Positions 16,967 through 31,285 of a DNA stretch of 32,748 nucleotides are shown piece after piece. Both the position numbers and the translations under genes were made by a program. Source of the stretch: Rhodoferax sp. (GTDB lineage: Bacteria; Pseudomonadota; Gammaproteobacteria; Burkholderiales; Burkholderiaceae_C); NCBI GenBank assembly GCA_016790475.1, contig JAEUOX010000061.1, positions 1 through 32,748 on the forward strand. Direction: 5' to 3'. Below the pieces are notes generated by a model. That model did not search any database and had not been told where the DNA came from. It saw nothing but the letters and a program-made list of their open reading frames with translations. Within the stretch, counting starts at the first letter, position 1. Each line of letters begins with the position of its first letter.

Positions 16967-17572
16967 GTGACACTGCATCCAGGACCCGCCACTCCCCTGC
17001 TCCGGCCGGTGCGCGACCCCGCGCCAATGCTGCGCCGGGCGCTGCAGGAATGGGGCGGCGCCAGCGACCTGTGGGTGTTCGCCTATGCCTCGCTGATCTG
17101 GCGCCCGGATTTCGACGTCGCCGAGCAGCACATCGCGCGGGTACACGGCTGGCACCGGGCCCTGAAGATGTGGAGCCGCATCAACCGGGGCAGCCCGGAG
17201 TTGCCGGGCCTGGTGTTCGCGCTGCTGTCCGGCGGCAGCTGCCAGGGCGCCGTGCTGCGGGTGCCGCAGCGCGACGCCGAAGGCGTGATGCACAAGCTGT
17301 GGGAGCGCGAGATGGTCACCGGTGTCTACGACCCGCGCTGGCTGCGCTGCCAGACCGCCACCGGCACGGTGCGGGCGCTGGGTTTCACGCTGTCGCGCAC
17401 CAGCCCCAACTACACCGGCGAGCTCAGCCCGGAGCGCTACCGGCAGATCTTCGCGCATGCCCGCGGGCGCTACGGCACGACGCTGGACTACGCGGACCAG
17501 ACGCTGCGCTGCCTGCAGCAGCATGGCATCCATGACGCGGCGCTGCACCGGCTGCTGCGCCACGCGCCCTGA
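16967..17572 (+). CDS. ChaC-like gamma-glutamylcyclotransferase
   Basis: A 201-aa protein of the ChaC family, which cleaves glutathione into 5-oxoproline and Cys-Gly in the cytoplasm. The fold signature is WVFAYASLIWRPDF (about residues 36-49), where most ChaC enzymes have YGSLxW; here the glycine is alanine. The catalytic glutamate is probably in LWEREMVTGVY (about 112-122), aligning with LWKREMITGCY of E. coli ChaC. Two starts are possible: GTG 16967 (used here) and ATG 17027, which would give 181 residues and still keep the domain; neither has a convincing ribosome-binding site. It is divergent from edd, and pdxH follows after 48 nt on the same strand. Confidence 0.82.
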   Translation: MTLHPGPATPLLRPVRDPAPMLRRALQEWGGASDLWVFAYASLIWRPDFDVAEQHIARVHGWHRALKMWSRINRGSPELPGLVFALLSGGSCQGAVLRVPQRDAEGVMHKLWEREMVTGVYDPRWLRCQTATGTVRALGFTLSRTSPNYTGELSPERYRQIFAHARGRYGTTLDYADQTLRCLQQHGIHDAALHRLLRHAP

Positions 17573-17620
17573 GACACCCGCCCTCCGCGCCGGGCCATCC
17601 CGGCTTTCTATACTCGGCCC

Positions 17621-18259
17621 ATGGACAACATCGCCGACCTGCGCAAGAGCTACGAGCGCGCCGAACTCAGTGAAGACGCCTGCCAGGCCGACCCGCTGCA
17701 GCAGTTCAGCCAGTGGCTGGACGAGGCGATCCGCGCGCAGGTCCCCGAGCCGAACGCAATGACGCTGGCCACCGTGGGCAGCGACCTGCGGCCCAGTACC
17801 CGGGTGGTACTGATCAAGGGCTTGGATGCGCGTGGCATCGTCTGGTACACCAACTACGAAAGCCGCAAGGGCCAGGAGCTCGCCGGCAACCCCTATGCCG
17901 CGCTGCAGTTCCACTGGGTTGAGCTGGAACGGGTCGTGCGGATCGAGGGCCTGGTCGAGAAGGTGGCGCCTGAGGAGAGCGATGCCTACTTCCAGAGCCG
18001 TCCGCTGGACTCCCGCATCGGCGCCTGGGCCTCGCCGCAATCGCAGGTGATTTCCGGGCGTGCGGTACTCGTCGCGAATGCGGCGCGCTATGGTGCGCAG
18101 TTCCTGCTGCATCCGCCGCGGCCGCCCCACTGGGGCGGCTACCGGCTGCGGCCGGACAGCTGGCAGTTCTGGCAGGGCCGCAAGAGCCGGCTGCATGACC
18201 GGCTGCGCTACACGCTGCAGGACGATGGCGGCTGGCTGCGCGAGCGGCTGGCGCCCTGA
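17621..18259 (+). CDS. pdxH: Pyridoxamine/pyridoxine 5'-phosphate oxidase
   Basis: FMN enzyme that makes pyridoxal 5'-phosphate from pyridoxamine or pyridoxine phosphate, the final step of B6 synthesis and salvage. The 212-aa length is standard. Family signatures are [12 protein letters not shown] at the N-terminus, [20 protein letters not shown] with the FMN and phosphate contacts (residues about 61-80), [31 protein letters not shown] and the C-terminal dimerisation and binding domain [25 protein letters not shown]. It ends 6 nt from the convergent AEC permease gene. Confidence 0.97.
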
Positions 18260-18265
18260 GCCGCG

Positions 18266-19213
18266 TCAGCCGGCTCCGGCGAGCAGCATCACCAGCGATA
18301 CGCTGAACAGCGCGACCATCGTGGACACCGCGACGCTCGCGGTGATCAGCGGCATCGCCACCCCGTAGCGCTGCGAGAACAGGAACACGTTGGCGCCGAT
18401 CGGCAGCGCCGCGGTCACCGTCAGCACGGTCAGTGGCACACCCCGCATGCCCATCGCCCAGCCGGCGGCGGCAGCCAGCAGCGGCACGACGAAGTTCTTG
18501 ATCGCGGCCTGCTGCAGCGCGCCGCGCAGGTGTTCCCCAATGGATGCATTGGCCAGCGCAATGCCCACCAGCACCAGCGCCAGCGGTCCGAACGCGCGGC
18601 CCAGCCATTGCATCCCCAGCTCCAGCGGCGCGGCCACGCCCCAGCCGGTCTGGGCATACAGCAGGCCCGCAATGATCGGCAAGGGCACCGGGTGGATCAG
18701 GGCCTTGCGCAACGCCAGTGCCCCCACGCACAGCAGGTGGCCGGGCCGCGTCGCAGACTGCGCGGCCTGTTCGCGCGCCAGGGCGAACTCCAGGCCCACG
18801 GTGGCAGCCGTCAGCAGCACCAGCGAGTGGATCGGGATCAAGGTCAGCAGCGTCACCAGCCCGGCATCGCCCCAGGCCAGTTGCACGAGCGGGATGCCGA
18901 TCATCACCGCGTTGCTGTAGGTCACGCCCAGCGCCAGCACCACGGCGCTGCGGTTCATGCCGCGCCAGGCGAGCACGGCGCCAAACACCAGGCCCAGCGC
19001 CAGGATGTAGGCCGCCGCCGGGCGCGGATCGAGCTGCTCGACATGCACGGTGCGCATCGTGCGAAACAGCAGGATCGGCGTGAGGACCTGGAAAGACAGC
19101 AGGGACAGGCGCCGTACCCAGGCCGGGGACACCCAGCCGGCGCGGCCGAGAACCCAGCCCACCAGGATCAGGGCCACGACGGGCAGCAGGGCCGACAGCA
19201 CCAGGGTATTCAT
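18266..19213 (-). CDS. AEC (auxin efflux carrier) family permease
   Basis: A 315-aa inner-membrane transporter with about ten hydrophobic segments. The N-terminal pattern (LLPVVALILVGWVLGRAGWV) and the second-half repeat (LALVLVGIALANASIGEHL, then NFVVPLLAAAAGWAMGM) are typical of AEC permeases such as malonate or malate carriers and YfdV. The substrate is not predictable. ATG 19213 begins directly at the first membrane helix and gives family length. It lies downstream of, and on the same strand as, the TonB receptor (48-nt gap), so read-through from the zinc operon is possible, but it is probably a separate unit. Confidence 0.87.
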   Translation of the reverse strand: MNTLVLSALLPVVALILVGWVLGRAGWVSPAWVRRLSLLSFQVLTPILLFRTMRTVHVEQLDPRPAAAYILALGLVFGAVLAWRGMNRSAVVLALGVTYSNAVMIGIPLVQLAWGDAGLVTLLTLIPIHSLVLLTAATVGLEFALAREQAAQSATRPGHLLCVGALALRKALIHPVPLPIIAGLLYAQTGWGVAAPLELGMQWLGRAFGPLALVLVGIALANASIGEHLRGALQQAAIKNFVVPLLAAAAGWAMGMRGVPLTVLTVTAALPIGANVFLFSQRYGVAMPLITASVAVSTMVALFSVSLVMLLAGAG

Positions 19214-19261
19214 CGCCAACGGGGTGCGCAAAGCGGCGCAGTATCGCACCCCGTGGCGGCG

Positions 19262-21382
19262 TCAGAAGCTGGCCTGCAGGCCCAGCTTCAGGCTGCGCCC
19301 GGGCAGCGGCGCCTTGCCGGGTGCTGTCTGCGTCAGGATCGAGGTGGCGGGCACCGCCAGCACATCGCCCAGGTTGTCCAGCCGGGCGTACCACAGCAGG
19401 TTCGCCACGCCCGCTTTCTGGCGGTAGGTTAGCGCCGCATCGACCAGCGTGTAGGCCGCGGTGGCCCGCTGGCCGGCCGGGACCCGGTTCTGAGCGACGT
19501 GGGTCACGCCCAGCCGCGCACCCCAGGGCCCCGATGCCCAGACCAGCGTGGCACCGAGCCGCGCCGGCGCGATGCGCGGCAGGAACTGGCCGGTGCGCAG
19601 GTTCACCGCACGCACCCGGTCCGCGCGCCATTCCAGATCCAGCGTCTGCACCCCCTCGGCCAGGCGCCAGCTGCCGCTGGCCTCCAGCCCGGTGAAGCGG
19701 GCCGGAATCGGGGCATAGGCGTACTCGGGCAGGACCGCGGCCGTGCCGCCGGACTCGACCGAATTGCCGCTGCCGTCGTCGGTGACGCCGACGCCTGCCC
19801 CATTGCCGTCGGTGTCGCGCAGCCGTCCGGTGGCCTCCAGCGCCAGGTAGTTGCCGAAGCGATTCGCAAACACCCCGATGCGGGCGCTGTCCGCCCCCCG
19901 CTTCCAGGCGACCGCCACGTCCAGGTTGGTCGAACGTTCCTTGCCCAGCCCGGCGTTGCCCACCTCGTACGCATTCGTGGCGATGTGGGGCCCATCGGCA
20001 AAGAGCTCGTAGTCCCGCGGTGCGCGCTCGCTGGTGGCCAGGGTGGACGTCAGCTGCCAGGCCTCCGACAGGTTCCACAAGGTGCCCAGCGCCGCGCTGC
20101 GCGGCGTGAACGCCCGCTCGGCAGGTACGAACCGGGCCACCAGCGGGTTGCCGAGGGAGGCCACCCGCACCAACTCGGCCCGCGCGCCCAGGCTCAGCCG
20201 GCCCCAGCCGGTCGCGATTTCCTCGTAGACCAAGGCGGCAGCCTGGCGCGTGCGGCTGGTCGGCGCAAAGGCCTCGGCACCATCGGCCAAGAAGCGCGTG
20301 GCCTCGGCCTGCAGGCCGACGAGCCCGTCCAGCGGCCCGATGCGGGCATGGCGCAGTTCCAGCCGCAGGTCGATGCCGGCGTTGCTGAACACGGTGCCGG
20401 GCACGCCGGCCTCGAACTCGGTATGCCGGTAGCCCGTGTGGCCGAGCCGGAACCGGACCGCGCGGACGGCGCCGTCCTCGCTTCGCAGCTCCCCCTGCAA
20501 GGTCGTGCGCAGGGAACGCATGCCGATCGTGACCTCGTCCTCCGCGACCGTCCCGTAGTCGGACCGGTAGCTGTCGACCGACAGCCCCAGGTAGCCCTGC
20601 GGCAGGAACACCGTGGCGCCGAGCGCGCCGCCGTGGCTGCGCGCCTGCGAGTTGCAGATCCGGCTGTCCAACGCCGGCGATCCCGGCCGGGCGCAGGCAA
20701 GGCGCACCGGCACACCGGTGTCGCCGGCATCGCGGTGAAAAGCGTCGGCATGCAGCAAGAAGCGGTCGGTGCCGCCCTCCAGCATCAGGCCGGCGCTCTT
20801 CTCGCGGCTGCCGCTGGCATAGCCGGCGTCGGCGCGACCGCCGATGCCGCCTTCCGGGCCGAAGAGCGCTTCCGGCGCGATACGGTTGTCGATCAGGTTC
20901 ACGACGCCGCCGACCGCATTGCCGCCGTACAGCAGCACGCCCGGGCCGCGCAGCACCTCGATGCGCTCGACCGCGATCGGATCGTTGGGTACCGCATGGT
21001 CGTAGCTCAGGCCGGACGCATCGATGCTGGCGCCGCCGTTGCCCAGGATCCGGATGCGGTCACCGTCCAGGCCGCGGATCACCGGGCGGCTGGCGTTGGG
21101 CCCGAAGTAGGTGCTGCTGACGCCGGGGCTGCCGTCCAGCGTGGCACCCAGCGTATTGCCGGCGCGCAGCAGCAGGCCGGTGCCGGCATAGGCCGCGGCC
21201 GGAGCGATCAGGTCGTCGGATCCCAGCGGATTGCCGGTCACGGTGATCGGGGGCAGCGTCCCGGAGGAGGCTGTCTGGGCCTGCGAAGGCACCGTGAACA
21301 AAGCGGCCAGGGCCGCGACCAATGGAAAGGCAGGCGCGCGACGCGCCCGGCGACAGGCCGCCGCAAGAGGATTGGAGGGCAT
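19262..21382 (-). CDS. ZnuD-like TonB-dependent outer-membrane receptor
   Basis: A 706-aa outer-membrane receptor, last gene of the zur operon, expected to import zinc or a zinc complex with TonB energy. It has a signal peptide ending near AQA (residue 36), a TonB-box-like LPPITVTG (43-50), a plug domain with RGLDGDRIRILGNGGASID (103-121) and VLRGPGVLLYGGNAVGGVVN, then a 22-strand-type barrel ending in Phe706. Asp128-His129 in SYDHAVPND correspond to the Asp-His pair I recall as zinc ligands in Neisseria ZnuD. Cys230 and Cys243 could form a disulfide-closed extracellular loop. Unlike Neisseria ZnuD it lacks long His-rich loops. The gap to the upstream gene is 74 nt. Family assignment is good; zinc as substrate rests on context and these residues. 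Confidence 0.85.
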   Translation of the reverse strand: MPSNPLAAACRRARRAPAFPLVAALAALFTVPSQAQTASSGTLPPITVTGNPLGSDDLIAPAAAYAGTGLLLRAGNTLGATLDGSPGVSSTYFGPNASRPVIRGLDGDRIRILGNGGASIDASGLSYDHAVPNDPIAVERIEVLRGPGVLLYGGNAVGGVVNLIDNRIAPEALFGPEGGIGGRADAGYASGSREKSAGLMLEGGTDRFLLHADAFHRDAGDTGVPVRLACARPGSPALDSRICNSQARSHGGALGATVFLPQGYLGLSVDSYRSDYGTVAEDEVTIGMRSLRTTLQGELRSEDGAVRAVRFRLGHTGYRHTEFEAGVPGTVFSNAGIDLRLELRHARIGPLDGLVGLQAEATRFLADGAEAFAPTSRTRQAAALVYEEIATGWGRLSLGARAELVRVASLGNPLVARFVPAERAFTPRSAALGTLWNLSEAWQLTSTLATSERAPRDYELFADGPHIATNAYEVGNAGLGKERSTNLDVAVAWKRGADSARIGVFANRFGNYLALEATGRLRDTDGNGAGVGVTDDGSGNSVESGGTAAVLPEYAYAPIPARFTGLEASGSWRLAEGVQTLDLEWRADRVRAVNLRTGQFLPRIAPARLGATLVWASGPWGARLGVTHVAQNRVPAGQRATAAYTLVDAALTYRQKAGVANLLWYARLDNLGDVLAVPATSILTQTAPGKAPLPGRSLKLGLQASF

Positions 21383-21456
21383 GGGTTGTCGTGTACTGAA
21401 AAATCCGGTCCGCCCGGCCGCGCGCAGGCCGCCGGGTCCACGTAAGCAGGAAGGTC

Positions 21457-21837
21457 TCAGGGCGTGGCGGGCGGACTGCGGGCGCGGACGCGTGTCGGCG
21501 TCCGGCCACAGGGCACGATGCGCGGTGTGGCACGCATCCAGACCGTCGGCAGCACCCCGGCCGCTGCGGCCCCACCCGGCGAAGGCGCGCCAGGCGGGCT
21601 GGTCTGGTCCATCAGACGACAGGTCGCCTCGTCGTCGTGATCGGCAAGGAGATGCAGCAGGCCGGTCGAGTCGGCCTGCGGCGTGTCGGGGGATGCCCGA
21701 AGGGCGTCAGGCTGCCATCCGGCGGGCCCGTGCGCATGCAGCACACCGTGCACCAGCCCCTTCCAGGGTGCCAGCACCAGCGCCGCGAGCAGCAGCCACC
21801 AGGCCGGGTGCCGGGCGCGCCGACGGAGGGAGGTCAT
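21457..21837 (-). CDS. Small His-containing membrane/periplasmic protein, DUF2946-like
   Basis: A 126-aa protein with one hydrophobic segment (WWLLLAALVLAPWKGLVHGV, about 13-32) after a basic N-terminus, so a signal peptide or anchor. Potential metal ligands cluster in the next part: His30, His34, His36, His62, His67 and Cys73 (HAHG and LLADHDDEATCRLMDQ), with Cys110 later. The tail ends in RARSPPATP, resembling the ARGPP-type end common in DUF2946 proteins, small proteins often found next to metal receptors. The match is by pattern only. It lies 25 nt after the DUF3299 gene and 74 nt before the ZnuD-like receptor on the same strand. A periplasmic zinc-handling accessory role is inference. 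Confidence 0.6.
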   Translation of the reverse strand: MTSLRRRARHPAWWLLLAALVLAPWKGLVHGVLHAHGPAGWQPDALRASPDTPQADSTGLLHLLADHDDEATCRLMDQTSPPGAPSPGGAAAAGVLPTVWMRATPRIVPCGRTPTRVRARSPPATP

Positions 21838-21862
21838 GGCGCCCCCGCGGGCGCCGGGGCGC

Positions 21863-22360
21863 CTACTTGATGCTGGACGCGTCGGTCACGCGGTAGAACA
21901 GGCCGTAGGGATCGTCCAGCAGCACCTGGAACCGGCCCTCGACGACGACCGGCTCCAGCGAATAGGCCACCGGCGTCTTGGTGCGGACCTCGACCATGCT
22001 CTCCGGCCCGCCGGGCACGCAGAAACCGCAGGTCATCGGGACCGAAGTCAGCAGGAAGTGCTTCTGTTTCTCGCCGGGCTCCAGCGGCATCATGAAGCCC
22101 TGGATGCGCTGGGTCTTCTGGTTGAGCGCCATCTGGCTCATCTGGAAGACCGGCAGCACCTTGTTCTTGTCGGTCTTGGTCTTGATGTCGGTCAGCACGG
22201 ACCAGGGCACCACGTCGGCCCGGTCCCGCAAGGGCGCGAACGGGCTGTTCGGGCTGTGGATGCCCGGGCCGGTGCCTGTCGCCAGCGGCGCGGTCAATGG
22301 CTGGGCCGACGCGCCGAGCGACGCCAGCGTCAGTGCCAGGACCAGAACTGCTTTTTTCAT
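21863..22360 (-). CDS. DUF3299 periplasmic protein
   Basis: A 165-aa exported protein with a clear signal peptide (MKKAVLVLALTLASLGASAQ, cleavage after ASA near 18). The mature domain has the DUF3299 order: VVPWSVLTDIK (about 50), a conserved strand IQGFMMPLEPGEKQKHFLLT (86-105), then Cys111-Gly-Phe-Cys114 (SVPMTCGFCVPGGPESM), a likely redox or metal site. Function is unknown for the family. From memory, a related gene (PA4066) is the last member of the zinc-responsive PA4063-PA4066 cluster of Pseudomonas aeruginosa. ATG 22360 is chosen because it starts the signal peptide. It lies 82 nt after the 87-aa gene and 25 nt before the DUF2946-like gene. Confidence 0.82.
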   Translation of the reverse strand: MKKAVLVLALTLASLGASAQPLTAPLATGTGPGIHSPNSPFAPLRDRADVVPWSVLTDIKTKTDKNKVLPVFQMSQMALNQKTQRIQGFMMPLEPGEKQKHFLLTSVPMTCGFCVPGGPESMVEVRTKTPVAYSLEPVVVEGRFQVLLDDPYGLFYRVTDASSIK

Positions 22361-22442
22361 GGGGCGCTCCCGATTGACGGATGGAACGGACTTTGGAGCC
22401 GGGCGGCCCACCAAGGTTCCCGTTCATTATCACCCCGGCCGC

Positions 22443-22706
22443 TCAGTGTTCGTGCCGCATGCCGCAGTACTTGCCGATCGCCAGGCCCTTGCAGGCGGCC
22501 TGCAGTTCCTTGTTGCAGACATCCTCCTTCTTGCCGGATTCCAGGCATTTGGCGGCGCCCTCGTGCGCCGCGGCCATCGCGCGGTGGCGCGCGATGTCCT
22601 CCTTGGTCTCCTTGTCGGTGTGGGTGCCGGCGGCCCAGGCCGTGGCGCCCAACAGGCACAGCAGGGACAGCGCGGCAAACCGGAACAGGGGGGATGTCGT
22701 CGTCAT
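22443..22706 (-). CDS. Small secreted Cys/His-rich protein
   Basis: An 87-aa protein with a signal peptide (FAALSLLCLLGATAWA, cleavage near residue 25). The mature chain of about 62 residues holds four cysteines (54, 64, 72, 81) and five histidines (29, 41, 48, 85, 87), ending CGMRHEH. This composition suggests either a disulfide-stabilised helical protein or a periplasmic metal binder. I do not recognise a named domain. Its place beside the ABC genes recalls PA4063 of Pseudomonas aeruginosa by position only. It starts 30 nt after the FtsX-like permease gene and has GGAG upstream (GGGGGAACTCC on the complement needs care). Function unknown. Confidence 0.75.
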   Translation of the reverse strand: MTTTSPLFRFAALSLLCLLGATAWAAGTHTDKETKEDIARHRAMAAAHEGAAKCLESGKKEDVCNKELQAACKGLAIGKYCGMRHEH

Positions 22707-22736
22707 GGGGGAACTCCTGGTGAAAGGGAAAGGGGA

Positions 22737-23945
22737 TCAGGAACGGGATTGCAGCAGCGTCGTGACATCGAGCCGGTAGGCGCCCCAGGCCGGCAGCAGC
22801 GCGGCAACCAGCCCCACCCCCAGGCCCAAAAGCACGATCCAGCCCTCGGCAGCCAGCCAGGTCCAGCCGGTCAGCGACAGCGAGCGCTCCGACTGCAGCC
22901 AGATGCCGGCCACCTGCGTCAGGCCATGGCCCAGCAGCAGACCCAGCACCACCGCCAGGCTGGCCAGCAGCAGCGCCTCGCAGACCACCAGGCCGGCCAC
23001 GCGGCGCGGCGGCGCGCCCAGCATGCGCAGCATCGCCAGGTCAGCCCGGCGCTCGCGCACCGCGTTCCACAGCGCGATGAAGACGCTCAGCCCGGCGGTC
23101 AGCAGCAGCACCGCGCCGAAGCCGCGCAGCACATCGGTGCCGACACCCAGCATCCGCAGCAGCCGGGTGATCTCGACGGCCGGTGCGGCAGCCTGCATCT
23201 CGGTCGTCGTGTTGACGAAGCGCGGGAAGGTGACCGCCGCCAGCGGGCTCTTGTAGGTGATCAGCGCCATCGTGATCTCCCGCTCCGCCTCCAGCAGCTT
23301 GCGGTCCTCCTCGTCGGTCGCGGTGGCCTTTTCATGGACCTGCCAGACCGATTCGGTGGCCGTCAGCAGCAGCCGGTCCAGCACGCAGCCGCAGGGCGCC
23401 AGGATGCCGGTGACGCTGTAGGGGTTCTCGCCATGGGCGTGGCCATTGGCACCCAGGCCGTGCGAGCCGATGAAGCGCGCGCCGACCGTCAGCCCGGTGC
23501 TGGCAGCCACCTGGCTGCCCGCGACCGCCTGCATCGGTGCGCTCCACAGCGTGCCCTGGGTCAGCGTGACGCCGTAGTGCTGCGCATAGGCCGGCGTGGT
23601 GCCGACGATCCGGAAGCCGCGGAAGGTGTCGCCCAGGCTGATCGGGATCAGCCGGGCGATCCGCGCGTCCTTCTGCAACTCCTGCACATCGGCCAGCGCG
23701 ATGTTGCCCGGCGGCACATCGATATGGAAGACGCCCGCCAGGATCAGCTGCATCGGGCTGCCCTTCGCGCCGACGACGACGTCGATGCCGGCCAGGTCGC
23801 GCTCGAAGGCCTGATCGATCTGGCTGCTGACCAGCAGCAGAAAGCTGATCGAGCCCAGCCCGAGCGTCAGCAGCAGCAAGTTCAGCGCGGCTGCCAGCGG
23901 GCGGGCCCACAGGTAGCGCCAGGCGATCGCGAGCATCTGCCTCAT
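22737..23945 (-). CDS. FtsX/MacB-type ABC transporter permease
   Basis: A 402-aa inner-membrane permease with one N-terminal membrane helix (about 18-40), a large periplasmic domain (about 45-265) and three C-terminal helices, the FtsX/MacB/LolC plan of type VII ABC systems. Motifs are VVVGAKGSPMQLILAGVFHI (about 56-75) and RRADLAMLRMLGAPPRRVAG near 325. The periplasmic domain contains His162, His169, His171, Cys185 and Cys187 (GANGHAHGEN and APCGCVLD), a possible metal site. It overlaps the ATPase stop by 4 nt (ATGA). Type VII systems usually transmit force to periplasmic partners or export from the periplasm, and are not classical importers, so its part in zinc supply is open. Confidence 0.9.
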   Translation of the reverse strand: MRQMLAIAWRYLWARPLAAALNLLLLTLGLGSISFLLLVSSQIDQAFERDLAGIDVVVGAKGSPMQLILAGVFHIDVPPGNIALADVQELQKDARIARLIPISLGDTFRGFRIVGTTPAYAQHYGVTLTQGTLWSAPMQAVAGSQVAASTGLTVGARFIGSHGLGANGHAHGENPYSVTGILAPCGCVLDRLLLTATESVWQVHEKATATDEEDRKLLEAEREITMALITYKSPLAAVTFPRFVNTTTEMQAAAPAVEITRLLRMLGVGTDVLRGFGAVLLLTAGLSVFIALWNAVRERRADLAMLRMLGAPPRRVAGLVVCEALLLASLAVVLGLLLGHGLTQVAGIWLQSERSLSLTGWTWLAAEGWIVLLGLGVGLVAALLPAWGAYRLDVTTLLQSRS

Positions 23946-24604
23946 GCGGCCCCCTGCCCGGCTGGTCCGCTGCCCAGCCGGCAGCGTTGCGCCTGCGGCA
24001 GCGCGCTGGCCACACGGACATCGTGCGTGGCAATCACCAGACTGGCCTGCAAGCGGTCGGCGGTGTCGGACAGGAGTTGCAACGCGGCGGCAGCGGCCGC
24101 GTCATCCAGGCTCGCCGTTGGCTCGTCCGCCAGGATGACGCGGGGCCGCAGCAGAACGGCCCGGGCGAGCGCGACCCGCTGCGCCTGCCCGCCGGACAGC
24201 TGGGCCGGGCGCCGCTGTGCCAGCGCCTCCAGGCCGAGGGCGGCCAGCACCTGGGTCACCGCCGCCGGGTCGGCCGGCACGCCGGCGGCCCACGGGGCCA
24301 GGGCGAGATTGCCCTGCACCGTCAGCGCCTCGCTCAGATGCAGACGCTGCGGCAGGAAGCCGATCGCCCGCCCGCGCCAGGCGTCCAGCGTCACCGCGCT
24401 GAGCGCCTGCAGGTCCTGCCCGGCCACCGCCAGCTGGCCACCGGTTGGCCGCAGCAGTCCGGCGGCCAGCGCCATCCAGGTGGACTTGCCGGCCCCCGAG
24501 GCCCCGTGCAGCAGCAGCGTGCCGCCCTGCGGCAGGTCCACGTCCGGGAAGGCCAGGTCCGGGCCCTGGGCGTAGTGGTAGCGCAGGCCCTCGCTGCGGA
24601 TCAC
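23942..24604 (-). CDS. ABC transporter ATP-binding protein (MacB/LolD type)
   Basis: A 220-aa cytoplasmic ATPase that drives the FtsX-like permease. Walker A is GASGAGKS (about residues 35-42), the signature is QLSGGQAQRVALARA, Walker B is VILADEPTASLD, and the H-loop is IATHD. The start is GTG 24604 (first residues VIRSEGLRY as read). It overlaps the stop codon of the Zur-like gene as GTGA; the frame is open further upstream, but that part is antisense-like sequence within the regulator. Its stop overlaps the permease start as ATGA. Both overlaps imply translational coupling of regulator, ATPase and permease. Confidence 0.95.
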   Translation of the reverse strand: MIRSEGLRYHYAQGPDLAFPDVDLPQGGTLLLHGASGAGKSTWMALAAGLLRPTGGQLAVAGQDLQALSAVTLDAWRGRAIGFLPQRLHLSEALTVQGNLALAPWAAGVPADPAAVTQVLAALGLEALAQRRPAQLSGGQAQRVALARAVLLRPRVILADEPTASLDDAAAAAALQLLSDTADRLQASLVIATHDVRVASALPQAQRCRLGSGPAGQGAA

Positions 24605-25080
24605 GGTGTGGCTCCCGAGGCGCAGTCGGCGCAGACGCCACGCACCGCCATGTCCAGGCGCAGGCCCTGGTAACCGAGCGCCTGCAGCGTCTCGATCGCG
24701 GTGCGTGCGGCGCGCTCCAGATCCAGCGCGCTGGCCTGCAGCGCACCGGCCAGCGGGCGCTCGCGGTGGCAGCTCCGGCATTCGAAATGGGGCGTGGCGT
24801 GCACGCTGGCCGGCATGGCCTGGTAACGCCGCACACGCCGTGCATCGACCCGGCACAGCAGCAGGCCGACCTGCGTCAGCCGGTCGATCAGCCGGTAGAG
24901 CGTCACGCGGTCCAGCCCGGCGGCGCCGTCGCCCTGCAGGGCCGCCTGCAGCTGGGCATGCGTGAAGCTGGTGTCCGGGTGGGCGAGCATCCAGCCCAGC
25001 ACCTGCCGCGCCGCCTGGGTACGGCGCAGGCCATGGGCGCTGAGCAGGGCATCGATCGGATCGTCGGGCAGCGGCGGCAT
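24601..25080 (-). CDS. zur: Fur-family regulator, Zur-like
   Basis: A 159-aa Fur-superfamily repressor. The winged helix is about residues 10-85 (HGLRRTQAARQVLGWMLAHP, then LDRVTLYRLIDRLTQVGLL). The dimerisation domain carries HFECRSCHRERPL (Cys about 120 and 123) and GVCADCA (Cys about 150 and 153), the two CxxC pairs of the structural zinc site in Zur and Fur. Zinc specificity is inferred from the operon partners (ZnuD-like receptor, PA4064/4065-like ABC) and from the inverted repeat in front of the gene. It begins the seven-gene operon and would be autoregulated. ATG 25080 has no Shine-Dalgarno sequence and lies about 10 nt from a candidate -10. Fur or PerR identity cannot be excluded from sequence alone. 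Confidence 0.85.
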   Translation of the reverse strand: MPPLPDDPIDALLSAHGLRRTQAARQVLGWMLAHPDTSFTHAQLQAALQGDGAAGLDRVTLYRLIDRLTQVGLLLCRVDARRVRRYQAMPASVHATPHFECRSCHRERPLAGALQASALDLERAARTAIETLQALGYQGLRLDMAVRGVCADCASGATP

Positions 25081-25144
25081 GAGGGTCTTTATTGCAACTG
25101 GGTTGCATTAAACCACAACGAACGCTGCTCTATAGTCGGCCGCC
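25081..25144. promoter_or_regulatory. Zur-box-like operator and divergent promoters
   Basis: The 64-bp gap between the regulator and the AstE/AspA-like gene contains ATTGCAACTGGGTTGCATT (25091-25109), with perfect arms TGCAAC (25093-25098) and GTTGCA (25102-25107). On the minus strand TTGTGG (25118-25113), 16 nt, TGCAAT (25096-25091) is a candidate promoter for the regulator with the repeat filling the spacer. On the plus strand TTAAAC (25108-25113), 17 nt, TATAGT (25131-25136) is a candidate promoter for the hydrolase, its -35 touching the repeat. A repressor bound here could shut both directions. The motif is seen; binding by Zur is inference. Confidence 0.65.
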
Positions 25145-26140
25145 ATGCACGCCTCCCCCACCTCGAACCCGCCCACCGCCCATCTGCGGATCCACCAGTA
25201 CCGCACGCTCGCGCCGGGCCCCCGCGTGATCGTGCTCGGCGCCGTCCATGGCAATGAGACCTGCGGCACACGCGCGATCGAGCGCCTGGTGCAGGCGCTC
25301 GACAGCGGGGCGCAGACCCTGGCGCGCGGGCAGCTGACGCTGGTGCCCGTGACCAACCCGCTGGCCTACCAGCGCCAGCAGCGCAATGGCGAGCGCAACC
25401 TGAACCGCAACCTGCTGCCGAACGCCTCGCCACAGGACTATGAGGACCGCATCGCCAACGTGCTGTGCCCGCTGCTGGCCGAGCACGACGTGCTGCTGGA
25501 CCTGCACTCCTTCCAGTCGCAGGGCGAGCCCTTCGTGATGCTCGGCCCGGTGGACAACACCGGTGACCTGGAGCCTTTCGCGCAGGCGGCGCAGGAGCAG
25601 GCGCTGGCCCTGCGCCTGGGCCCGCGGCGCATCGTCGAGGGCTGGCTGCAGACCTATGCCGTCGGGGTGCAGCGCCGCCTGGAGCGCACCGCGCCGGGCG
25701 ACCGGGCCCATCTGCTGAGCACCGACCCCTGCTACGGCATCGGCACCACCGAGACCATGCGCCGCCACGGCGGTTATGCGCTGACGCTGGAATGCGGCCA
25801 GCACCAGGACCCGCAGGCGCCCGAGGTGGCCTGGCAGGCGATCCAGCGCACGCTGGCGCACCTGCAGCTGATCGACCAGCCGGCGCCCGCCCCGACCCCG
25901 GCCGTCGAGTTCCTGCGCCTGACCGAGGTGGTGGACCGCCTGCATGCCGGCGACAGCTTCGCCCGGCCCTGGTCCAGCTATGACCGGGTGCAGGCCGGGC
26001 AGACGATCGGCACGCGGCACGACGGCACACCGGTCTGCGCACCCCAGGACGGCTTCATCGTGTTCCCGAACGCGAATGCCGTCGCGGGCAACGAATGGTT
26101 CTACTTCGCGCAGCCGAGCACCCGCAGCCTCGGCGGCTGA
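25145..26140 (+). CDS. Zinc-dependent AstE/AspA-family hydrolase (M14-like)
   Basis: A 331-aa cytoplasmic zinc hydrolase of the succinylglutamate desuccinylase/aspartoacylase family, which cleaves N-acyl amino acids or related amides. Zinc ligands are His35 and Glu38 (GAVHGNETCG) and His121 (LLDLHSFQSQ); the catalytic glutamate is Glu216 (LTLECGQH). The substrate-carboxylate Asn-Arg motif appears in ERNLNRNLLP (about 83-92). A C-terminal beta domain (about 245-331, VCAPQDGFIVFPNANAVAGN) is typical. It is not in an arginine-degradation (ast) context. It is divergent from the Zur-like regulator with an operator-bearing 64-bp gap, so zinc control is likely by position. The true substrate is unknown. 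Confidence 0.85.
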   Translation: MHASPTSNPPTAHLRIHQYRTLAPGPRVIVLGAVHGNETCGTRAIERLVQALDSGAQTLARGQLTLVPVTNPLAYQRQQRNGERNLNRNLLPNASPQDYEDRIANVLCPLLAEHDVLLDLHSFQSQGEPFVMLGPVDNTGDLEPFAQAAQEQALALRLGPRRIVEGWLQTYAVGVQRRLERTAPGDRAHLLSTDPCYGIGTTETMRRHGGYALTLECGQHQDPQAPEVAWQAIQRTLAHLQLIDQPAPAPTPAVEFLRLTEVVDRLHAGDSFARPWSSYDRVQAGQTIGTRHDGTPVCAPQDGFIVFPNANAVAGNEWFYFAQPSTRSLGG

Positions 26141-26208: not shown

Positions 26209-26254
26209 TTGACGAGACCGGGGCCGTCCGGCTACATTACTAACCCGTCAGTCA
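26209..26254 (+). promoter_or_regulatory. Promoter and operator of the tetR-MFP-RND operon
   Basis: TTGACG (26209-26214), an 18-nt spacer and TACATT (26233-26238) form a good sigma-70 promoter. TTACTAACCCGTCAGTCA (26237-26254) is a pseudo-palindrome whose arms (TTACTAAC and GTCAGTCA) agree at 6 of 8 positions. It overlaps the -10 and the expected start of transcription. Placement and form fit autorepression by the TetR protein encoded immediately downstream. Confidence 0.65.
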
Positions 26255-26265
26255 TTAATTTTCCG

Positions 26266-26961
26266 ATGCCCCCGAACGTTCCTGTTGGCGAGCCGCCCGC
26301 CGTGGTGCCGCACGCGAAGACCGCCCGCCGCAAGCAGGCCCGTCCGAGCGAGCTGGTGGCCGCCGCGCTGGACCTGTTCGTCGAAAAGGGCTTCGCCGCC
26401 ACCCGGGCCGAGGAAGTCGCCACCCGGGCCGGTGTCTCCAAGGGCACGCTGTTCCTGTACTTCGCCAGCAAGGAAGACCTTTTCAAGGCGGTGGTGCGAG
26501 AGAACATCTCCGGCCTGTACCCGGAGTGGTCGGTGGAGCTGGACAACTACACCGGCAGCACCGCGGAGCTGCTGCACTACTGCATGCAGGCCTGGTGGTC
26601 CCGCTTCGGCGACACCAAGGCCTCCGGCATCTCCAAGCTCATCATGAGCGAGGCACGCAACTTCCCGGAACTGGCCAGCTTCTACCAGCAGGAGGTCGTC
26701 GAGCCGGGCAGCGCGCTGATCCGGCGCATCCTGCAGCGCGGCGTCGACCGCGGCGAGTTCCACCCGATCGACATGCGCTACGGCGTCTATGTCGTGCTGG
26801 CCCCGATGATGTTCCTGGTGACCTGGAAACACTCGCTGGGCGCCTGCCTGCCGGCCCAGACCGGCATCGTGCCGCAGGAGTACCTGCGCTTCCAGATCGA
26901 CACCATCCTGCGCGGCCTGGCCCGGCCCGCTGCCGCCCCCCCGAAAGGATCTGCCCCGTGA
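26266..26961 (+). CDS. TetR/AcrR-family repressor of the efflux operon
   Basis: A 231-aa TetR regulator. The N-terminal DNA-binding domain is about residues 25-75: [20 protein letters not shown], then [20 protein letters not shown], the classic TetR helix-turn-helix. The C-terminal ligand domain resembles the AcrR/TetR_C group found beside RND pumps. ATG 26266 is used; an in-frame reading further upstream would include the promoter. No Shine-Dalgarno sequence precedes it, and it begins roughly 20 nt after the expected transcription start. Its TGA overlaps the GTG start of the periplasmic adaptor gene (GTGA), so regulator and pump are one operon. Confidence 0.92.
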
Positions 26962-28091
26962 TTCGCCGATGGTTCCAGTGGGGCCTTGCCGCCCTGGTGA
27001 TCGCCGCCCTCGCCTTCGGCGTGCTGCGCGTGCTGTCGCAACGCAAGGAGCAGCAGGCCGCCGATGCGGCCAAGCTGTTGCAGCGCGCCCAGGCCGGCAT
27101 CGAGGTCGCCCCGACAGACCTGGTCGCCGTGCAGCTGCGCACGCTGGCGCGCACGGTGCCGGTTTCCGGCAGCCTGAAGGCGGCCAACACCGTTGTCGTC
27201 AAGGCCCGCGTCGCCGGTGAGCTGCAGGGCCTGAGTCTGCGCGAGGGCGACGCCGTACGGGCCGGGCAGACCGTCGCCCGGGTCGAGCCGGCCGACAGCC
27301 AGGCCCGGCTGCGGCAGACCGAGCAGCAGGCCGAGGCCGCGCGCGCGCAGGTCGACATCGCGCGGCGCAGCTTCGAGAACAACCGTGCGCTGAAGGCCCA
27401 GGGCTTCATTTCGCAGTTCGCGCTGGACTCCGCCGCCGCGAACCTGGCTGCCGCCGAGGCCAGCTACCAGGCGGCCCTGGCCGCCGCCGACGTGACCCGC
27501 AAGGCGCTGGAGGACACCGTGCTGCGCGCGCCGATCGCCGGCCTGGTGTCGCAGCGCCTGGCCCAGAACGGCGAGCGCCTGGCGGTGGACGGCCGGGTGC
27601 TGGAAATCGTGGACCTGCGCCGCATGGAGCTGGAAGCCAGCCTGAGCGCTGCCGAGGCCCTGCAGGTGCAGCCCGGCCAGAAGGCGCGGCTGCAGATTGA
27701 AGGTGTCCCGACGCCGGTGACCGCCACCGTCGCGCGGGTCAACCCGACCGTGCTGGCCGGCAGCCGCGCGGTGCTGGCCTACCTGGTGCTGGATCCGGTG
27801 CCGGGCCTGCGCCAGGGCCTGTTCGCCCAGGGACAGGTGCAGGTCGGCAGCGTGCAGGCCACCGCGGTGCCGCTCAATGCCGTGCGCACCGACAAGCCGC
27901 TGCCCTATGTGCAGCTGATCCGTGACCAGCGGCTGGTGCACCAGCAGGTGCAGGTCGGCGAGCGCGCCGACGCGGACGGCCAGACCGTCGTCGCGGTGCA
28001 GGGCCTGCCGGAGAACACCCGCGTGCTCAGCGGCGCCCTGGGTCCGCTGCGCGAGGGCACGCCGGTGACGCTGACCGCTGGCGGCAAATAG
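26958..28091 (+). CDS. RND efflux periplasmic adaptor (MFP)
   Basis: A 377-aa membrane-fusion protein linking the RND pump to an outer-membrane channel. The N-terminus is a single membrane anchor ([19 protein letters not shown]) with no lipobox cysteine, so it is probably anchored by this helix. It has a split lipoyl domain ([20 protein letters not shown] near 77-96 and [19 protein letters not shown] near 192-210), a central helical hairpin rich in Ala/Gln/Glu (about 105-185), and beta-barrel and membrane-proximal domains after that. Start GTG 26958 has AAGGA 9 nt upstream and overlaps tetR by 4 nt; the RND gene follows after 2 nt. Confidence 0.95.
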
Positions 28092-28093
28092 GC

Positions 28094-31000
28094 ATGTGGT
28101 TCACGCGCGTCAGTCTGCAGAACCCGGTCTTTGCGACCATGGTCATGCTGGCCCTGGTGGTGCTGGGCCTGTTCTCCTACCAGCGGCTGCAGATCGACCA
28201 GTTCCCGAACGTCGACCTGCCGGTCGTCGTGGTGATCACCGACTACCCCGGTGCGGCACCGGAGATTGTCGAAAGCGAGGTCACGAAGAAGGTCGAGGAA
28301 GGCGTCAACTCGATCGCCGGCATCAATGCGCTGACCTCGCGCACGACCGAGGGCCAGTCGGTCGTGATCCTGGAGTTCGGCCTGCATGTGGATGGCCGCA
28401 AGGCGGCGGAGGACGTTCGCGAGAAGGTGGCGGCGATCAAGCCGCTGCTGCGCACCGAGGTCAAGGAGCCGCGCGTGCTGCGTTTCGACCCGGCAGCCCG
28501 GTCGGTCTGGTCGGTCGCGGTGGTTCCGGATACGAAGACGGCCACCGGCACACGACCGATGTCGGCCGTGGAAATGACGAACTGGGCCGACCAGGTGCTC
28601 AAGAAGCGCCTGGAGAACGTGCGCGGTGTCGGCTCTGTCAGCCTGGTCGGCGGCACCAAGCGCGAGATCAACCTCTATCTGAACCCGCAGGCCCTGGAGG
28701 CCTTCGGCATCACGCCGGACCAGGTCGTCAGTGCGGTGCGCAACGACAACCAGGACCTGCCGCTGGGCGCCATCCGCTCCCGCGACCAGGAGCGCGTGAT
28801 CCAGATCGAGGCCCGCATCGAACGTCCGGAGGAGTTCGGCCGCATCATCGTCGCGCGGCGCAACGGCGCCGCGGTCCGGCTGGACCAGGTGGCGCGGGTC
28901 GCCGACGGCGCCCAGGAAGTGGACAGCCTGGCGCTGTACAACGGCGAGCGCACGCTGCTGCTGACGGTACAGAAGTCGCAGGACGAGAACACGATCGCGG
29001 TCGTGGATGGCCTGCAGAAGGCCGTGGCCGACATGCAGACCCGGCTGCCCCCGGGCCTGGCGTTGCAACTGATCACCGACGGTTCGCGCCAGATCCGGGT
29101 GTCGGTGGACAACGTGCGCCGCACGCTGATCGAGGGCGCGGTGCTGACGGTGCTGATCGTGTTCCTGTTCCTGAACTCCTGGCGCTCGACGGTGATCACC
29201 GGGCTGACGCTGCCGATCGCGATCATCGGCACCTTCCTGTTCATGAACATGTTCGGCTTCACGATCAACATGATCACGCTGATGGCGCTGAGCCTGTGCG
29301 TTGGCCTGCTGATCGACGACGCGATCGTGGTGCGCGAGAACATCGTGCGCCATGTGCAGATGGGCAAGACCCCGTTCCAGGCCTCGCTGGACGGCACGCA
29401 GGAGATCGGCCTGGCGGTGCTCGCCACCACACTGTCGATCGTGGCCGTGTTCATGCCGATCGGCTTCATGGGCGGCATCATCGGCAAGTTCTTCCATGAG
29501 TTCGGGCTGACGATCGTCGCGGCGGTGCTGATCTCGATGTTCGTCAGCTTCACGCTGGACCCGATGCTGTCCTCCGTCTGGCACGACCCGAGCATCGACA
29601 CCCACGGAAAGCCCCAGGGCGGCTGGTACGGCCGGACGATCGGCCGCGTGACCGGCGCATTCGACCGGGCCACCGACGCGCTGATCGACGCCTACCAGGC
29701 GATCCTGCGCCGGGCGCTGGGGCACCGGCTGGTCACCGTGGTGCTGGCCGTGGTGGTCTTCGCCACCAGCATCGCGATGGTGCCGCTGCTGGGCACGGAG
29801 TTCGTGCCGAAATCCGACTTCTCCGAGACCACGCTGAACTTCTACACGCCGATGGGCTCCTCGCTGGAGGTGACCGAGGCCAAGGCGCGCCAGGTCGAGG
29901 CGATCGTGCGCGCGCAGCCGGAGGTGCGCTACACGCTGACCACGATCAACACCGGCAACGCGCCCGGCAAGATCTCGGCCAGCGTGTATGTGCGTCTGGT
30001 CGACCGCAAGGACCGCGACAAGAGCGTGGATGCGCTGTCGGAGACCCTTCGTGCCCGGCTGCAGAAGATCCCCGGCATCACGGTCACGCATGTGGGTCTG
30101 CTGGATTCGGTGGGGGGCAACAAGCAGATCCAGTTCTCGATCCAGGGGCCGAACCAGGGCGAACTCGAGCGCATCGCCCGGCTCGCGATGGAACGGCTGC
30201 GCGGCATCCCCGGGCTGGTCGACCTGGATTCCAGCGTCAAGCCCGACAAGCCGACGCTGGACGTGGCCGTGCGCCGCGACGTGGCCTCCGACCTCGGCGT
30301 CAGCACCACGCAGATCGGCACGGCGCTGCGCACGCTGGTGGCCGGCCAGACCGTGGGCAACTGGCGGGCGCCCGACGACCAGACCTACGACGTCAACGTG
30401 CGGCTGGCGCCGGAGGCCCGCAACGCGCCGGACGACCTGCTGCGCCTGCCCTTCTCCGCCGGCACCAATGCAGACGGCTCGACCCGGATCGTGCGGCTGA
30501 ACCAGGTGGCCGAGGTGCGCGAGGGCACCGGCCCGAACCAGATCAACCGGCGCGACCTGACCCGCGAGGTGAGCCTCAGCGCCAATGCCGACGGCCGCTC
30601 CGCCGGCGAGATCTCGGCCGACATCCGCAGCACCATGGAGGGCATCGCGATGCCGCCGGGCTACAGCTTCAAGTTCAGCGGCGCGACCAAGGACATGGCC
30701 GAGGCCTTCGGCTACGCGATCTCGGCGCTGGTGCTGGCGATCGTGTTCATCTACATGATCCTGGCCAGCCAGTTCAAGAGCTTCCTGCAGCCGCTGGCCC
30801 TGATGACCGCGCTGCCGCTGACGCTGATCGGCGTGGTGGCCGCACTGCTGCTGTTCCGCTCGACGCTGTCGATGTTCTCGGTGATCGGCGTCGTGATGCT
30901 GATGGGTCTGGTCACGAAGAACGCGATCCTGCTGGTGGATTTCGCGATCCGGGCCCGCCAGGCGCAGATCGCCCCTGACGGCAGCCGGCAACCCGGCCTG

Positions 31001-31285
31001 GACCGCCACGACGCGCTGCTGCTGGCCGCCCGGGTGCGGCTGCGCCCGATCCTGATGACCACGCTGGCGATGGTGTTCGGCATGGTGCCGCTGGCCTTCG
31101 CGATCACCGAGGGCTCGGAGGTGCGTGCGCCGATGGGGCAGGCGGTCATCGGCGGCGTCATCACGTCCTCGCTGCTGACGCTGGTGGTGGTGCCGGTCGT
31201 GTACTGTTATATGGACGATCTGGCGGTCTGGCTGCGGCGGGTGGCCGGCCTGGCGCCAGCGCCTAGAATTGGCGGCGAGCCCTGA
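28094..31285 (+). CDS. RND-family multidrug efflux permease (HAE1 type)
   Basis: A 1063-aa inner-membrane proton-driven exporter, the full length of AcrB-type pumps. It starts with MWFTRVSLQNPVFATMVML, and two large periplasmic regions follow the first and seventh membrane helices. The proton relay has Asp408-Asp409 in LCVGLLIDDAIVVREN (TM4) and a lysine in LMGLVTKNAILLVDFA (TM10). The divided-repeat signature GTEFVPKSDFSE marks the second half. Cargo cannot be read; hydrophobic drugs or detergents are typical for HAE1. The operon has no outer-membrane factor of its own, but tolC begins about 1.1 kb downstream. Confidence 0.97.
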   Translation: MWFTRVSLQNPVFATMVMLALVVLGLFSYQRLQIDQFPNVDLPVVVVITDYPGAAPEIVESEVTKKVEEGVNSIAGINALTSRTTEGQSVVILEFGLHVDGRKAAEDVREKVAAIKPLLRTEVKEPRVLRFDPAARSVWSVAVVPDTKTATGTRPMSAVEMTNWADQVLKKRLENVRGVGSVSLVGGTKREINLYLNPQALEAFGITPDQVVSAVRNDNQDLPLGAIRSRDQERVIQIEARIERPEEFGRIIVARRNGAAVRLDQVARVADGAQEVDSLALYNGERTLLLTVQKSQDENTIAVVDGLQKAVADMQTRLPPGLALQLITDGSRQIRVSVDNVRRTLIEGAVLTVLIVFLFLNSWRSTVITGLTLPIAIIGTFLFMNMFGFTINMITLMALSLCVGLLIDDAIVVRENIVRHVQMGKTPFQASLDGTQEIGLAVLATTLSIVAVFMPIGFMGGIIGKFFHEFGLTIVAAVLISMFVSFTLDPMLSSVWHDPSIDTHGKPQGGWYGRTIGRVTGAFDRATDALIDAYQAILRRALGHRLVTVVLAVVVFATSIAMVPLLGTEFVPKSDFSETTLNFYTPMGSSLEVTEAKARQVEAIVRAQPEVRYTLTTINTGNAPGKISASVYVRLVDRKDRDKSVDALSETLRARLQKIPGITVTHVGLLDSVGGNKQIQFSIQGPNQGELERIARLAMERLRGIPGLVDLDSSVKPDKPTLDVAVRRDVASDLGVSTTQIGTALRTLVAGQTVGNWRAPDDQTYDVNVRLAPEARNAPDDLLRLPFSAGTNADGSTRIVRLNQVAEVREGTGPNQINRRDLTREVSLSANADGRSAGEISADIRSTMEGIAMPPGYSFKFSGATKDMAEAFGYAISALVLAIVFIYMILASQFKSFLQPLALMTALPLTLIGVVAALLLFRSTLSMFSVIGVVMLMGLVTKNAILLVDFAIRARQAQIAPDGSRQPGLDRHDALLLAARVRLRPILMTTLAMVFGMVPLAFAITEGSEVRAPMGQAVIGGVITSSLLTLVVVPVVYCYMDDLAVWLRRVAGLAPAPRIGGEP

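What the first reader, a model, noticed from the sequence alone, without database searches (positions are those of the whole stretch)
19262..25144. Compact zinc-starvation operon: regulator, ABC motor, three small periplasmic proteins and a ZnuD-like receptor
Seven same-strand genes join a Zur-like repressor to an FtsX/MacB-type ABC pair, a Cys/His-rich 87-aa protein, a DUF3299 protein, a DUF2946-like protein and a TonB receptor. Regulator, ATPase and permease are linked by GTGA and ATGA overlaps; other gaps are 25-82 nt. Type VII ABC systems are not classical importers. The arrangement therefore suggests an energised periplasmic step, such as extracting zinc from the receptor or remodelling periplasmic zinc proteins, and not ZnuABC-like uptake. 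From memory the ABC part resembles PA4063-PA4066 of Pseudomonas aeruginosa, a zinc-responsive cluster of unknown mechanism; fusion with zur and a receptor in one transcript makes the function easier to infer.
Basis: partly seen in the sequence, partly recalled or inferred. Interest (0 to 1): 0.8.

Follow-up and report, generated by a model that had tools for sequence, protein, structure and literature searches.

The report
Zur-controlled zinc operon, ZrgA-less Zrg branch
Seven linked genes in a Burkholderiales bacterium look like a zinc-starvation operon that resembles the Zrg / PA4063-PA4066 systems of Vibrio and Pseudomonas, but the usual zinc-binding protein is missing and a different small cysteine- and histidine-bearing protein is present in its stead.

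Summary
In detail: seven minus-strand genes (25080-19262) with GTGA and ATGA overlaps and gaps of 25-82 nt. They encode a Zur-like Fur protein, an ABC ATPase, a type VII (LolE/MacB/FtsX-fold) permease, an 87-aa protein (p87), a DUF3299 protein, a 126-aa protein and a receptor closest to ZnuD. Zinc control is supported by inference: a palindrome, TATTGCAACTGGGTTGCATTA (25090-25110), lies 9 nt before the regulator, and a TGCAACNNNGTTGCA match (up to 2 mismatches) lies upstream of 55 of 60 linked zur genes and 0 of 53 zur-less clusters. In 22 of 52 zur-linked loci znuC lies divergent. The seven-gene set recurs in 29 of 96 loci, 4 of 37 in the part not chosen by p87. The ABC system is a second branch of the known Zrg / PA4063-PA4066 kind: in 120 family genomes p87 goes with this branch (29 of 31), ZrgA with the classical one (20 of 20), and none has both. 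A new variant of a known kind. Whether the ABC unit imports zinc, exports a ligand or works on periplasmic proteins is not settled.

The parts
25090..25110 (.). palindromic operator TATTGCAACTGGGTTGCATTA, probable Zur box, in the 64-nt gap between zur and the divergent gene
   Evidence: the only exact TGCAACNNNGTTGCA in the 4.77-Mb assembly
24601..25080 (-). Zur-like Fur-family regulator, 159 aa, two CxxC pairs
   Evidence: PF01475 below cut-off for this member, 10 of 20 aligned relatives match
23942..24604 (-). ABC ATPase (ZrgC/PA4064 position), 220 aa, GTG start overlapping the zur stop
22737..23945 (-). type VII ABC permease (ZrgB/PA4065 position), membrane helices and a periplasmic domain with conserved H162, H171, H204
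22443..22706 (-). p87: 87-aa protein with a predicted leader, four invariant Cys and conserved His; no Pfam family over cut-off
21863..22360 (-). DUF3299 protein (ZrgE/PA4066 relative) with invariant CxFC
21457..21837 (-). 126-aa protein with a hydrophobic N-terminal stretch and H-x3-H, C and D motifs; a relative lies in the zrgD slot of a classical cluster
19262..21382 (-). TonB-dependent receptor, nearest solved structure ZnuD
18266..19249 (-). AEC/auxin-efflux-type transporter, possible eighth gene (12-nt gap)
   Evidence: within 300 nt after the last cluster gene in 22 of the loci mapped, the window included

Best explanation
A Zur-repressed zinc-scavenging operon. When zinc is low, Zur leaves the palindrome at 25090-25110 and all seven genes are made. 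The ZnuD-type receptor brings zinc (or a zinc ligand) through the outer membrane. The ATPase and permease are a type VII ABC unit, a branch parallel to ZrgBC / PA4064-PA4065, that uses ATP to move its periplasmic domain. Its most constant partner is the DUF3299 protein, and p87 takes over the metal-carrier role that ZrgA has in the classical branch. The unit most likely helps pass zinc along in the periplasm (release or loading of carriers) and does not form a ZnuB-like channel. Shown here: gene order, families, operator, znu linkage in relatives, exclusion of ZrgA and p87 across genomes, fold. Inferred: zinc response, zinc binding by p87, and the direction and nature of the ABC step.
Against: No expression or binding data. 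Many branch-B clusters have no zur and no such operator; 32 regions before msrA showed no Zur-type box, so zinc control is not general to the ABC branch. In this genome the operator is a lone exact match; six one-mismatch sites (1 hit in the backward control) were not typed and by eye mostly lie inside open frames, so no second Zur target is shown. p87 is missing from 9 of 38 branch-B genomes and occurs without neighbouring ABC genes in L096, L105, L119 and L174, so it is not an obligatory binding protein of the ABC unit. In 5 of the 20 ZrgA genomes the ZrgA hit is on another contig than the best branch-A permease. p87 is only a predicted helical hairpin (pLDDT 79, pTM 0.55), and its zinc binding is a guess. 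The CGC motif in the permease, which looked like a metal site, is present in only 49 of 117.
Confidence: 0.55

Rival explanations
1. MacB-like exporter: the ABC unit expels a metallophore or a surplus metal-ligand complex under zinc starvation, as argued for PA4063-PA4066 (pyochelin-cobalt).
For: Fold of the permease close to MacB and HrtB exporters; genetics in P. aeruginosa (passages and part of the Discussion).
Against: No adaptor, outer-membrane channel or metallophore gene among the seven, nor among the recurring neighbour groups typed (ten representatives). An HlyD-type group of 13 loci lies about 3-9 kb upstream on the other strand (one member typed), and in the window such a gene precedes an AcrB-type RND pump. 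Not every neighbour was typed.
Confidence: 0.2
2. True zinc importer: ATPase and permease move Zn(II) into the cytoplasm with p87 or the DUF3299 protein as binding protein, as the Vibrio papers propose for ZrgABC.
For: 21 of 38 branch-B genomes, the window's included, have no ZnuA match; V. cholerae zrgA is reported needed for normal growth in zinc-poor medium without ZnuA.
Against: I recall no type VII ABC unit shown to import a solute (recalled, no call); a ZIP homologue exists in this genome, so the operon need not be the only inner-membrane route; the genome is 89.8% complete.
Confidence: 0.15
3. LolCDE- or FtsEX-like unit that works on periplasmic or outer-membrane proteins (reloads or remodels zinc enzymes or the receptor), with no metal as substrate of the ABC unit.
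Against: No protein substrate known; nothing here shows contact with the receptor, which was not found in the neighbourhood of 39 of 91 ABC loci.
Confidence: 0.1

Closest known systems
ZrgABCDE of Vibrio and PA4063-PA4066 of Pseudomonas aeruginosa
   Same: Split ABC ATPase and MacB/FtsX-type permease, DUF3299 protein, probable zinc control, a small protein that may correspond to ZrgD.
   Different: No ZrgA/PA4063 (DUF2796) protein; p87 instead; permease 30-32% identical to four classical-branch relatives of the same family; DUF3299 protein has CxFC where the classical ones have invariant GACIH; zur and a ZnuD-type receptor in the same gene run; operator TGCAAC-NNN-GTTGCA, unlike the TGTTATATTATAACA-type site printed for V. 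parahaemolyticus.
ZnuD zinc receptor
   Same: Best solved relative, 187.5 bits; best NCBIfam model.
   Different: 227.6 bits against a cut-off of 950 for the curated ZnuD model.
ZnuABC with Zur
   Same: In relatives znuC lies divergent from this operon across the operator.
   Different: No ZnuA match in this genome; the permease of the operon matches FtsX/MacB_PCD, not ABC-3.
MacB, LolCDE, HrtBA, FtsEX (type VII ABC)
   Different: Unlike MacB, ATPase and permease are two chains and no adaptor gene is in the run; partners differ from those of LolCDE and FtsEX.

Membership tests
ZrgABCDE / PA4063-PA4066 | Adjacent ABC ATPase and FtsX/MacB-type permease | tested here: met
ZrgABCDE / PA4063-PA4066 | ZrgA/PA4063 protein (PF10986) in the cluster | tested here: not met
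   0 of 91 branch-B ABC loci within the mapped range, by a model built from three branch-A ZrgA proteins; no PF10986 match in this genome, 89.8% complete
ZrgABCDE / PA4063-PA4066 | DUF3299 protein (ZrgE/PA4066) | tested here: met
   PF11736 26.4 bits, cut-off 22; 30 of 30 aligned members match; profile match to classical members E 1.4e-05; PA4066 structure 4hsp only E 0.033
ZrgABCDE / PA4063-PA4066 | Small single-TM protein ZrgD | tested here: inconclusive
   p126 relative in the zrgD slot of L071, but no Pfam match of that relative or of the window protein to any family
ZrgABCDE / PA4063-PA4066 | Repression by Zur with zinc | not testable with these tools
   operator evidence only
Zur (Fur family) | FUR domain over the curated cut-off | tested here: not met
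   16.5 bits, cut-off 23.1; 10 of 20 aligned members match at E 0.001
Zur (Fur family) | Two CxxC pairs (structural zinc site; role recalled) | tested here: met
   C101, C104, C150, C153 invariant in 20 sequences
Zur (Fur family) | Operator shared with zinc importer genes | tested here: met
   in relatives only: znuC divergent in 22 of 52 zur-linked loci, operator match between in 20 of the 22; this genome has no ZnuA match
Zur (Fur family) | Groups with Zur and not with Fur or PerR in a tree | not tested
   no tree built for want of named reference sequences
ZnuD | Curated NCBIfam ZnuD cut-off | tested here: not met
   227.6 of 950 bits
ZnuD | Zinc-binding residues of ZnuD | not tested
   no residue comparison made
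MacAB-TolC exporter | ATPase and permease fused in one chain | tested here: not met
   two genes
MacAB-TolC exporter | MacA-type adaptor in the operon | tested here: not met
   none among the seven genes
[quoted passage not shown]
   long helices 16-51, 255-298, 313-352, 367-390 with a mixed domain between the first two, model pLDDT 89.8; matches; no TM predictor was run
DUF2946 | PF11162 match of the 126-aa protein | tested here: not met

The most novel reading that the evidence does not exclude
p87 is a new family of periplasmic zinc carrier that replaced ZrgA: it takes zinc from the ZnuD-type receptor through its four conserved histidines, held in a disulfide-braced hairpin, and hands it to a type VII ABC unit whose three conserved periplasmic histidines (H162, H171, H204) receive the metal. 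That would be a zinc relay from outer to inner membrane with ATP-driven release, in one transcript.
Probability: 0.25. Interest if true: 0.75.

Novelty: new variant of a known kind. Interest (0 to 1): 0.55.

Why it matters
The role of Zrg / PA4063-PA4066 systems is in dispute (zinc acquisition or ligand export). A second branch in which the zinc-binding protein is swapped while the ABC pair and the DUF3299 protein are kept, and which often travels with zur, znu genes or a ZnuD-type receptor, gives a natural experiment: what both branches share is the core mechanism, what is swapped is the likely metal carrier. It also names p87 as an unclassified candidate zinc protein and gives a candidate Zur operator for Burkholderiales.

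Tried and rejected
CGC motif of the permease as a metal site: present in 49 of 117 branch-B permeases only, rejected as a defining feature. DUF2946 for the 126-aa protein: no Pfam match; DUF6153 matched 3 of 20 aligned members weakly (best E 0.0025). p87 in PDB: no match at E 10; Pfam hits of its aligned members (Conotoxin in 17 of 46, best E 6.1e-05; DUF6488 in 9 of 46, best E 0.0023) are weak and I take them as cysteine and leader bias; its model was not searched for folds, being a small hairpin. With the wider pattern the backward control gave more hits (5 and 7) than the pattern (3 and 4). Alternative operator in msrA-linked loci: none clear in 23 and 32 regions; the best short palindrome, GCGCC-N4-GGCGC, was in 4 of 32 against a maximum of 1-2 in ten shuffles, G+C-rich and not followed. 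PADLOC: only weak partial hits for 2 of 5 proteins. L107 as p87 next to znuCB: the ATPase frame is an ABC ATPase by Pfam, but the membrane frame gave no match, so znuB is not confirmed and it is not used. A phylogeny of Zur against Fur and PerR was not built for want of reference sequences; the nearest PDB hit was 7dh7 (E 0.0083), which I recall as a Xanthomonas Zur. Literature: searches returned no paper; searches listed none that by title or start of abstract describes this Burkholderiales form; open PubMed Central papers only, seen as listings, except the four named in the report, of which passages or sections were seen.
Full report
What is there. Seven minus-strand genes between 25080 and 19262 are open and closely packed: zur-like, ABC ATPase, permease, p87, DUF3299 protein, 126-aa protein, TonB receptor. 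Zur and ATPase overlap by GTGA, ATPase and permease by ATGA; the other gaps are 30, 82, 25 and 74 nt. A divergent gene of the succinylglutamate desuccinylase/aspartoacylase family starts at 25145, leaving 64 nt in between. An AEC-type transporter gene follows the receptor after 12 nt.

Is the order real. I searched 120 genomes of the same GTDB family with the permease. Thirty-eight hold the same branch (call it B; whole or split hits of about 48% identity or more), and twenty-four a second branch (A; about 30-37%); I read these groups from the hit table. Thirty-six B loci and four A loci were fetched with flanks. With the window that is 37 B loci: p87 in 27, zur in 13, receptor in 17, and all seven genes in four (window, L041, L042, L048), read. 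A scan of named genomes with the p87 alignment gave 264 relatives, of which the best 80 were kept, many of them Polaromonas, Rhodoferax, Acidovorax and Hydrogenophaga. Over the loci with 3 kb before and 3.8 kb after the anchor (96, duplicates removed), 52 are zur-linked, 30 have msrA but no zur, 14 have neither, and 29 hold the full seven; this set is enriched for p87 by the way it was made.

Regulation. The window has TATTGCAACTGGGTTGCATTA at 25090-25110, 9 nt before the zur start codon. It holds the only exact TGCAACNNNGTTGCA in the 4.77-Mb assembly; six other sites have one mismatch, against one hit for the backward control, and were not typed. Within 300 nt upstream of zur, a match with at most 2 mismatches occurs in 55 of 60 loci, against 1 of 60 shuffled regions and 0 of 53 zur-less clusters. 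In 22 of 52 zur-linked loci znuC lies divergent, against 1 of 44 others; an operator match lies between znuC and zur in 20 of the 22. Pfam confirms ZnuA and the ABC-3 permease in L032, ZnuA in L045, and a CobW protein near the cluster in L112. This ties the regulator to zinc better than its sequence does: the window's own copy scores under the FUR cut-off, 10 of 20 aligned members match, and both CxxC pairs are invariant.

The ABC pair. Pfam gives FtsX and MacB_PCD for the permease. The AlphaFold model (pLDDT 89.8, pTM 0.80) has four long helices and a mixed domain between the first two, and matches LolE, MacB, HrtB and FtsX structures, so the type VII assignment stands. Three histidines, H162, H171 and H204, are kept in 117, 116 (one gap) and 117 of 117 B permeases and in 4 of 4 A permeases (where they are numbered 160, 169 and 202), and are not found at those columns in three other MacB_PCD proteins of this genome (these align poorly). 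They are a candidate metal site; whether they meet in space was not tested.

The small proteins. The DUF3299 protein is a distant relative of the classical one with an invariant CxFC where the classical ones have GACIH, and is present in 90 of 91 B loci with both ABC genes. p87 has four invariant cysteines, invariant H41 and H48, and H85 and H87 in at least 90% of 46 members, no Pfam family over its cut-off, and is modelled as a leader helix and a helical hairpin of moderate confidence. The 126-aa protein has a relative directly before zrgA in the A locus L071, the place of zrgD in V. parahaemolyticus by locus-tag order, but matches no Pfam family.

Relation to the known system. Branch-A loci carry genuine Zrg parts: the ZrgA of L071 matches PF10986 at E 5.8e-46 and the PA4063 structure at E 4.8e-17, its DUF3299 protein the PA4066 structure 4hsp at E 2.5e-29; zrgA lies beside the ABC pair in three of the four A loci fetched (L069, L070, L071). 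In the 120 genomes ZrgA over its cut-off occurs in 20 (a 21st, G015, is a weak hit below it), all 20 with an A permease, on the same contig in 15 of them; p87 occurs in 31, of which 29 have a B permease; no genome has both. One genome, G013, has both permeases, with ZrgA beside the A one. So B is a parallel branch in which ZrgA is absent and p87 usually present. It is not filed as ZrgABCDE, because ZrgA is missing.

How it may work. In V. cholerae and V. parahaemolyticus the Zrg system is reported as Zur-regulated and contributing under zinc limitation, with ZrgA proposed as binding protein (PMC9820375, PMC9817125; passages seen). For PA4063-PA4066 a 2024 paper argues for a MacB-type exporter of pyochelin-cobalt (PMC11481552; abstract, passages and part 1 of 3 of the Discussion seen). 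PMC8561739 describes PA4063 and notes that PA4066 has an OB-like fold of unknown role (passages seen). For the window I favour a periplasmic zinc relay: receptor, carriers, and an ATP-driven mechanical step on the periplasmic side. Arguments for a relay in place of an obligatory binding-protein importer are that p87 also occurs with the receptor but without neighbouring ABC genes (L105, L174) and that nine B genomes have the ABC pair without p87. The genome has no ZnuA match but does have a ZIP homologue, so the operon need not be the only inner-membrane route.

Limits. No expression, binding or uptake data. The genome is a draft at 89.8% completeness, so absences in it are weak. Clusters without zur show no such operator and may be controlled by something else. 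Counts over loci fetched by p87 are biased towards p87.

Noticed in passing
L033, L034, L036, L040, L049, L050, L053, L056, L058, L062 and others, upstream of the ATPase gene: In 30 of 96 fully viewed clusters a peptide methionine sulfoxide reductase gene (msrA; PF01625 confirmed for L033) precedes the ABC pair and no zur gene is found; no Zur-type operator was found there. Why MsrA and this ABC pair go together is unexplained.
   Followed up: partly
L105, L174, L096, L119: p87 without neighbouring ABC genes: with zur, 126-aa protein and receptor (L105), with msrA, 126-aa protein and receptor (L174), or between msrA and the AEC transporter (L096, L119).
   Followed up: partly
L107:7595-8038 (minus strand): A protein with two p87 repeats in one frame, next to an ABC ATPase (PF00005); the membrane frame beyond it was not typed by Pfam.
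   Followed up: partly
window 18266-19249 (minus strand): AEC-type transporter gene follows the operon closely here; it lies within 300 nt after the receptor, DUF3299 or p87 gene in 22 of the loci mapped, the window included; possible eighth member of unknown role.
   Followed up: partly
window 26209-31285 (plus strand): TetR regulator, HlyD-type adaptor and a 1063-aa AcrB-type RND pump on the other strand; TetR and HlyD groups recur near the cluster in other genomes.
   Followed up: partly
window 16967-18259 (plus strand): ChaC-like and pyridoxamine-phosphate-oxidase genes; their relatives often lie beside the cluster in other genomes.
   Followed up: no
L071:6532-8269: Classical-branch locus with three DUF3299 genes close together, two on one strand and one on the other.
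   Followed up: no
window genome G000: No ZnuA (PF01297) and no ZrgA (PF10986) match, one FUR match over cut-off, one ZIP transporter, two strong and two weak CobW matches; 21 of 38 branch-B genomes, this one included, lack a ZnuA match.
   Followed up: yes
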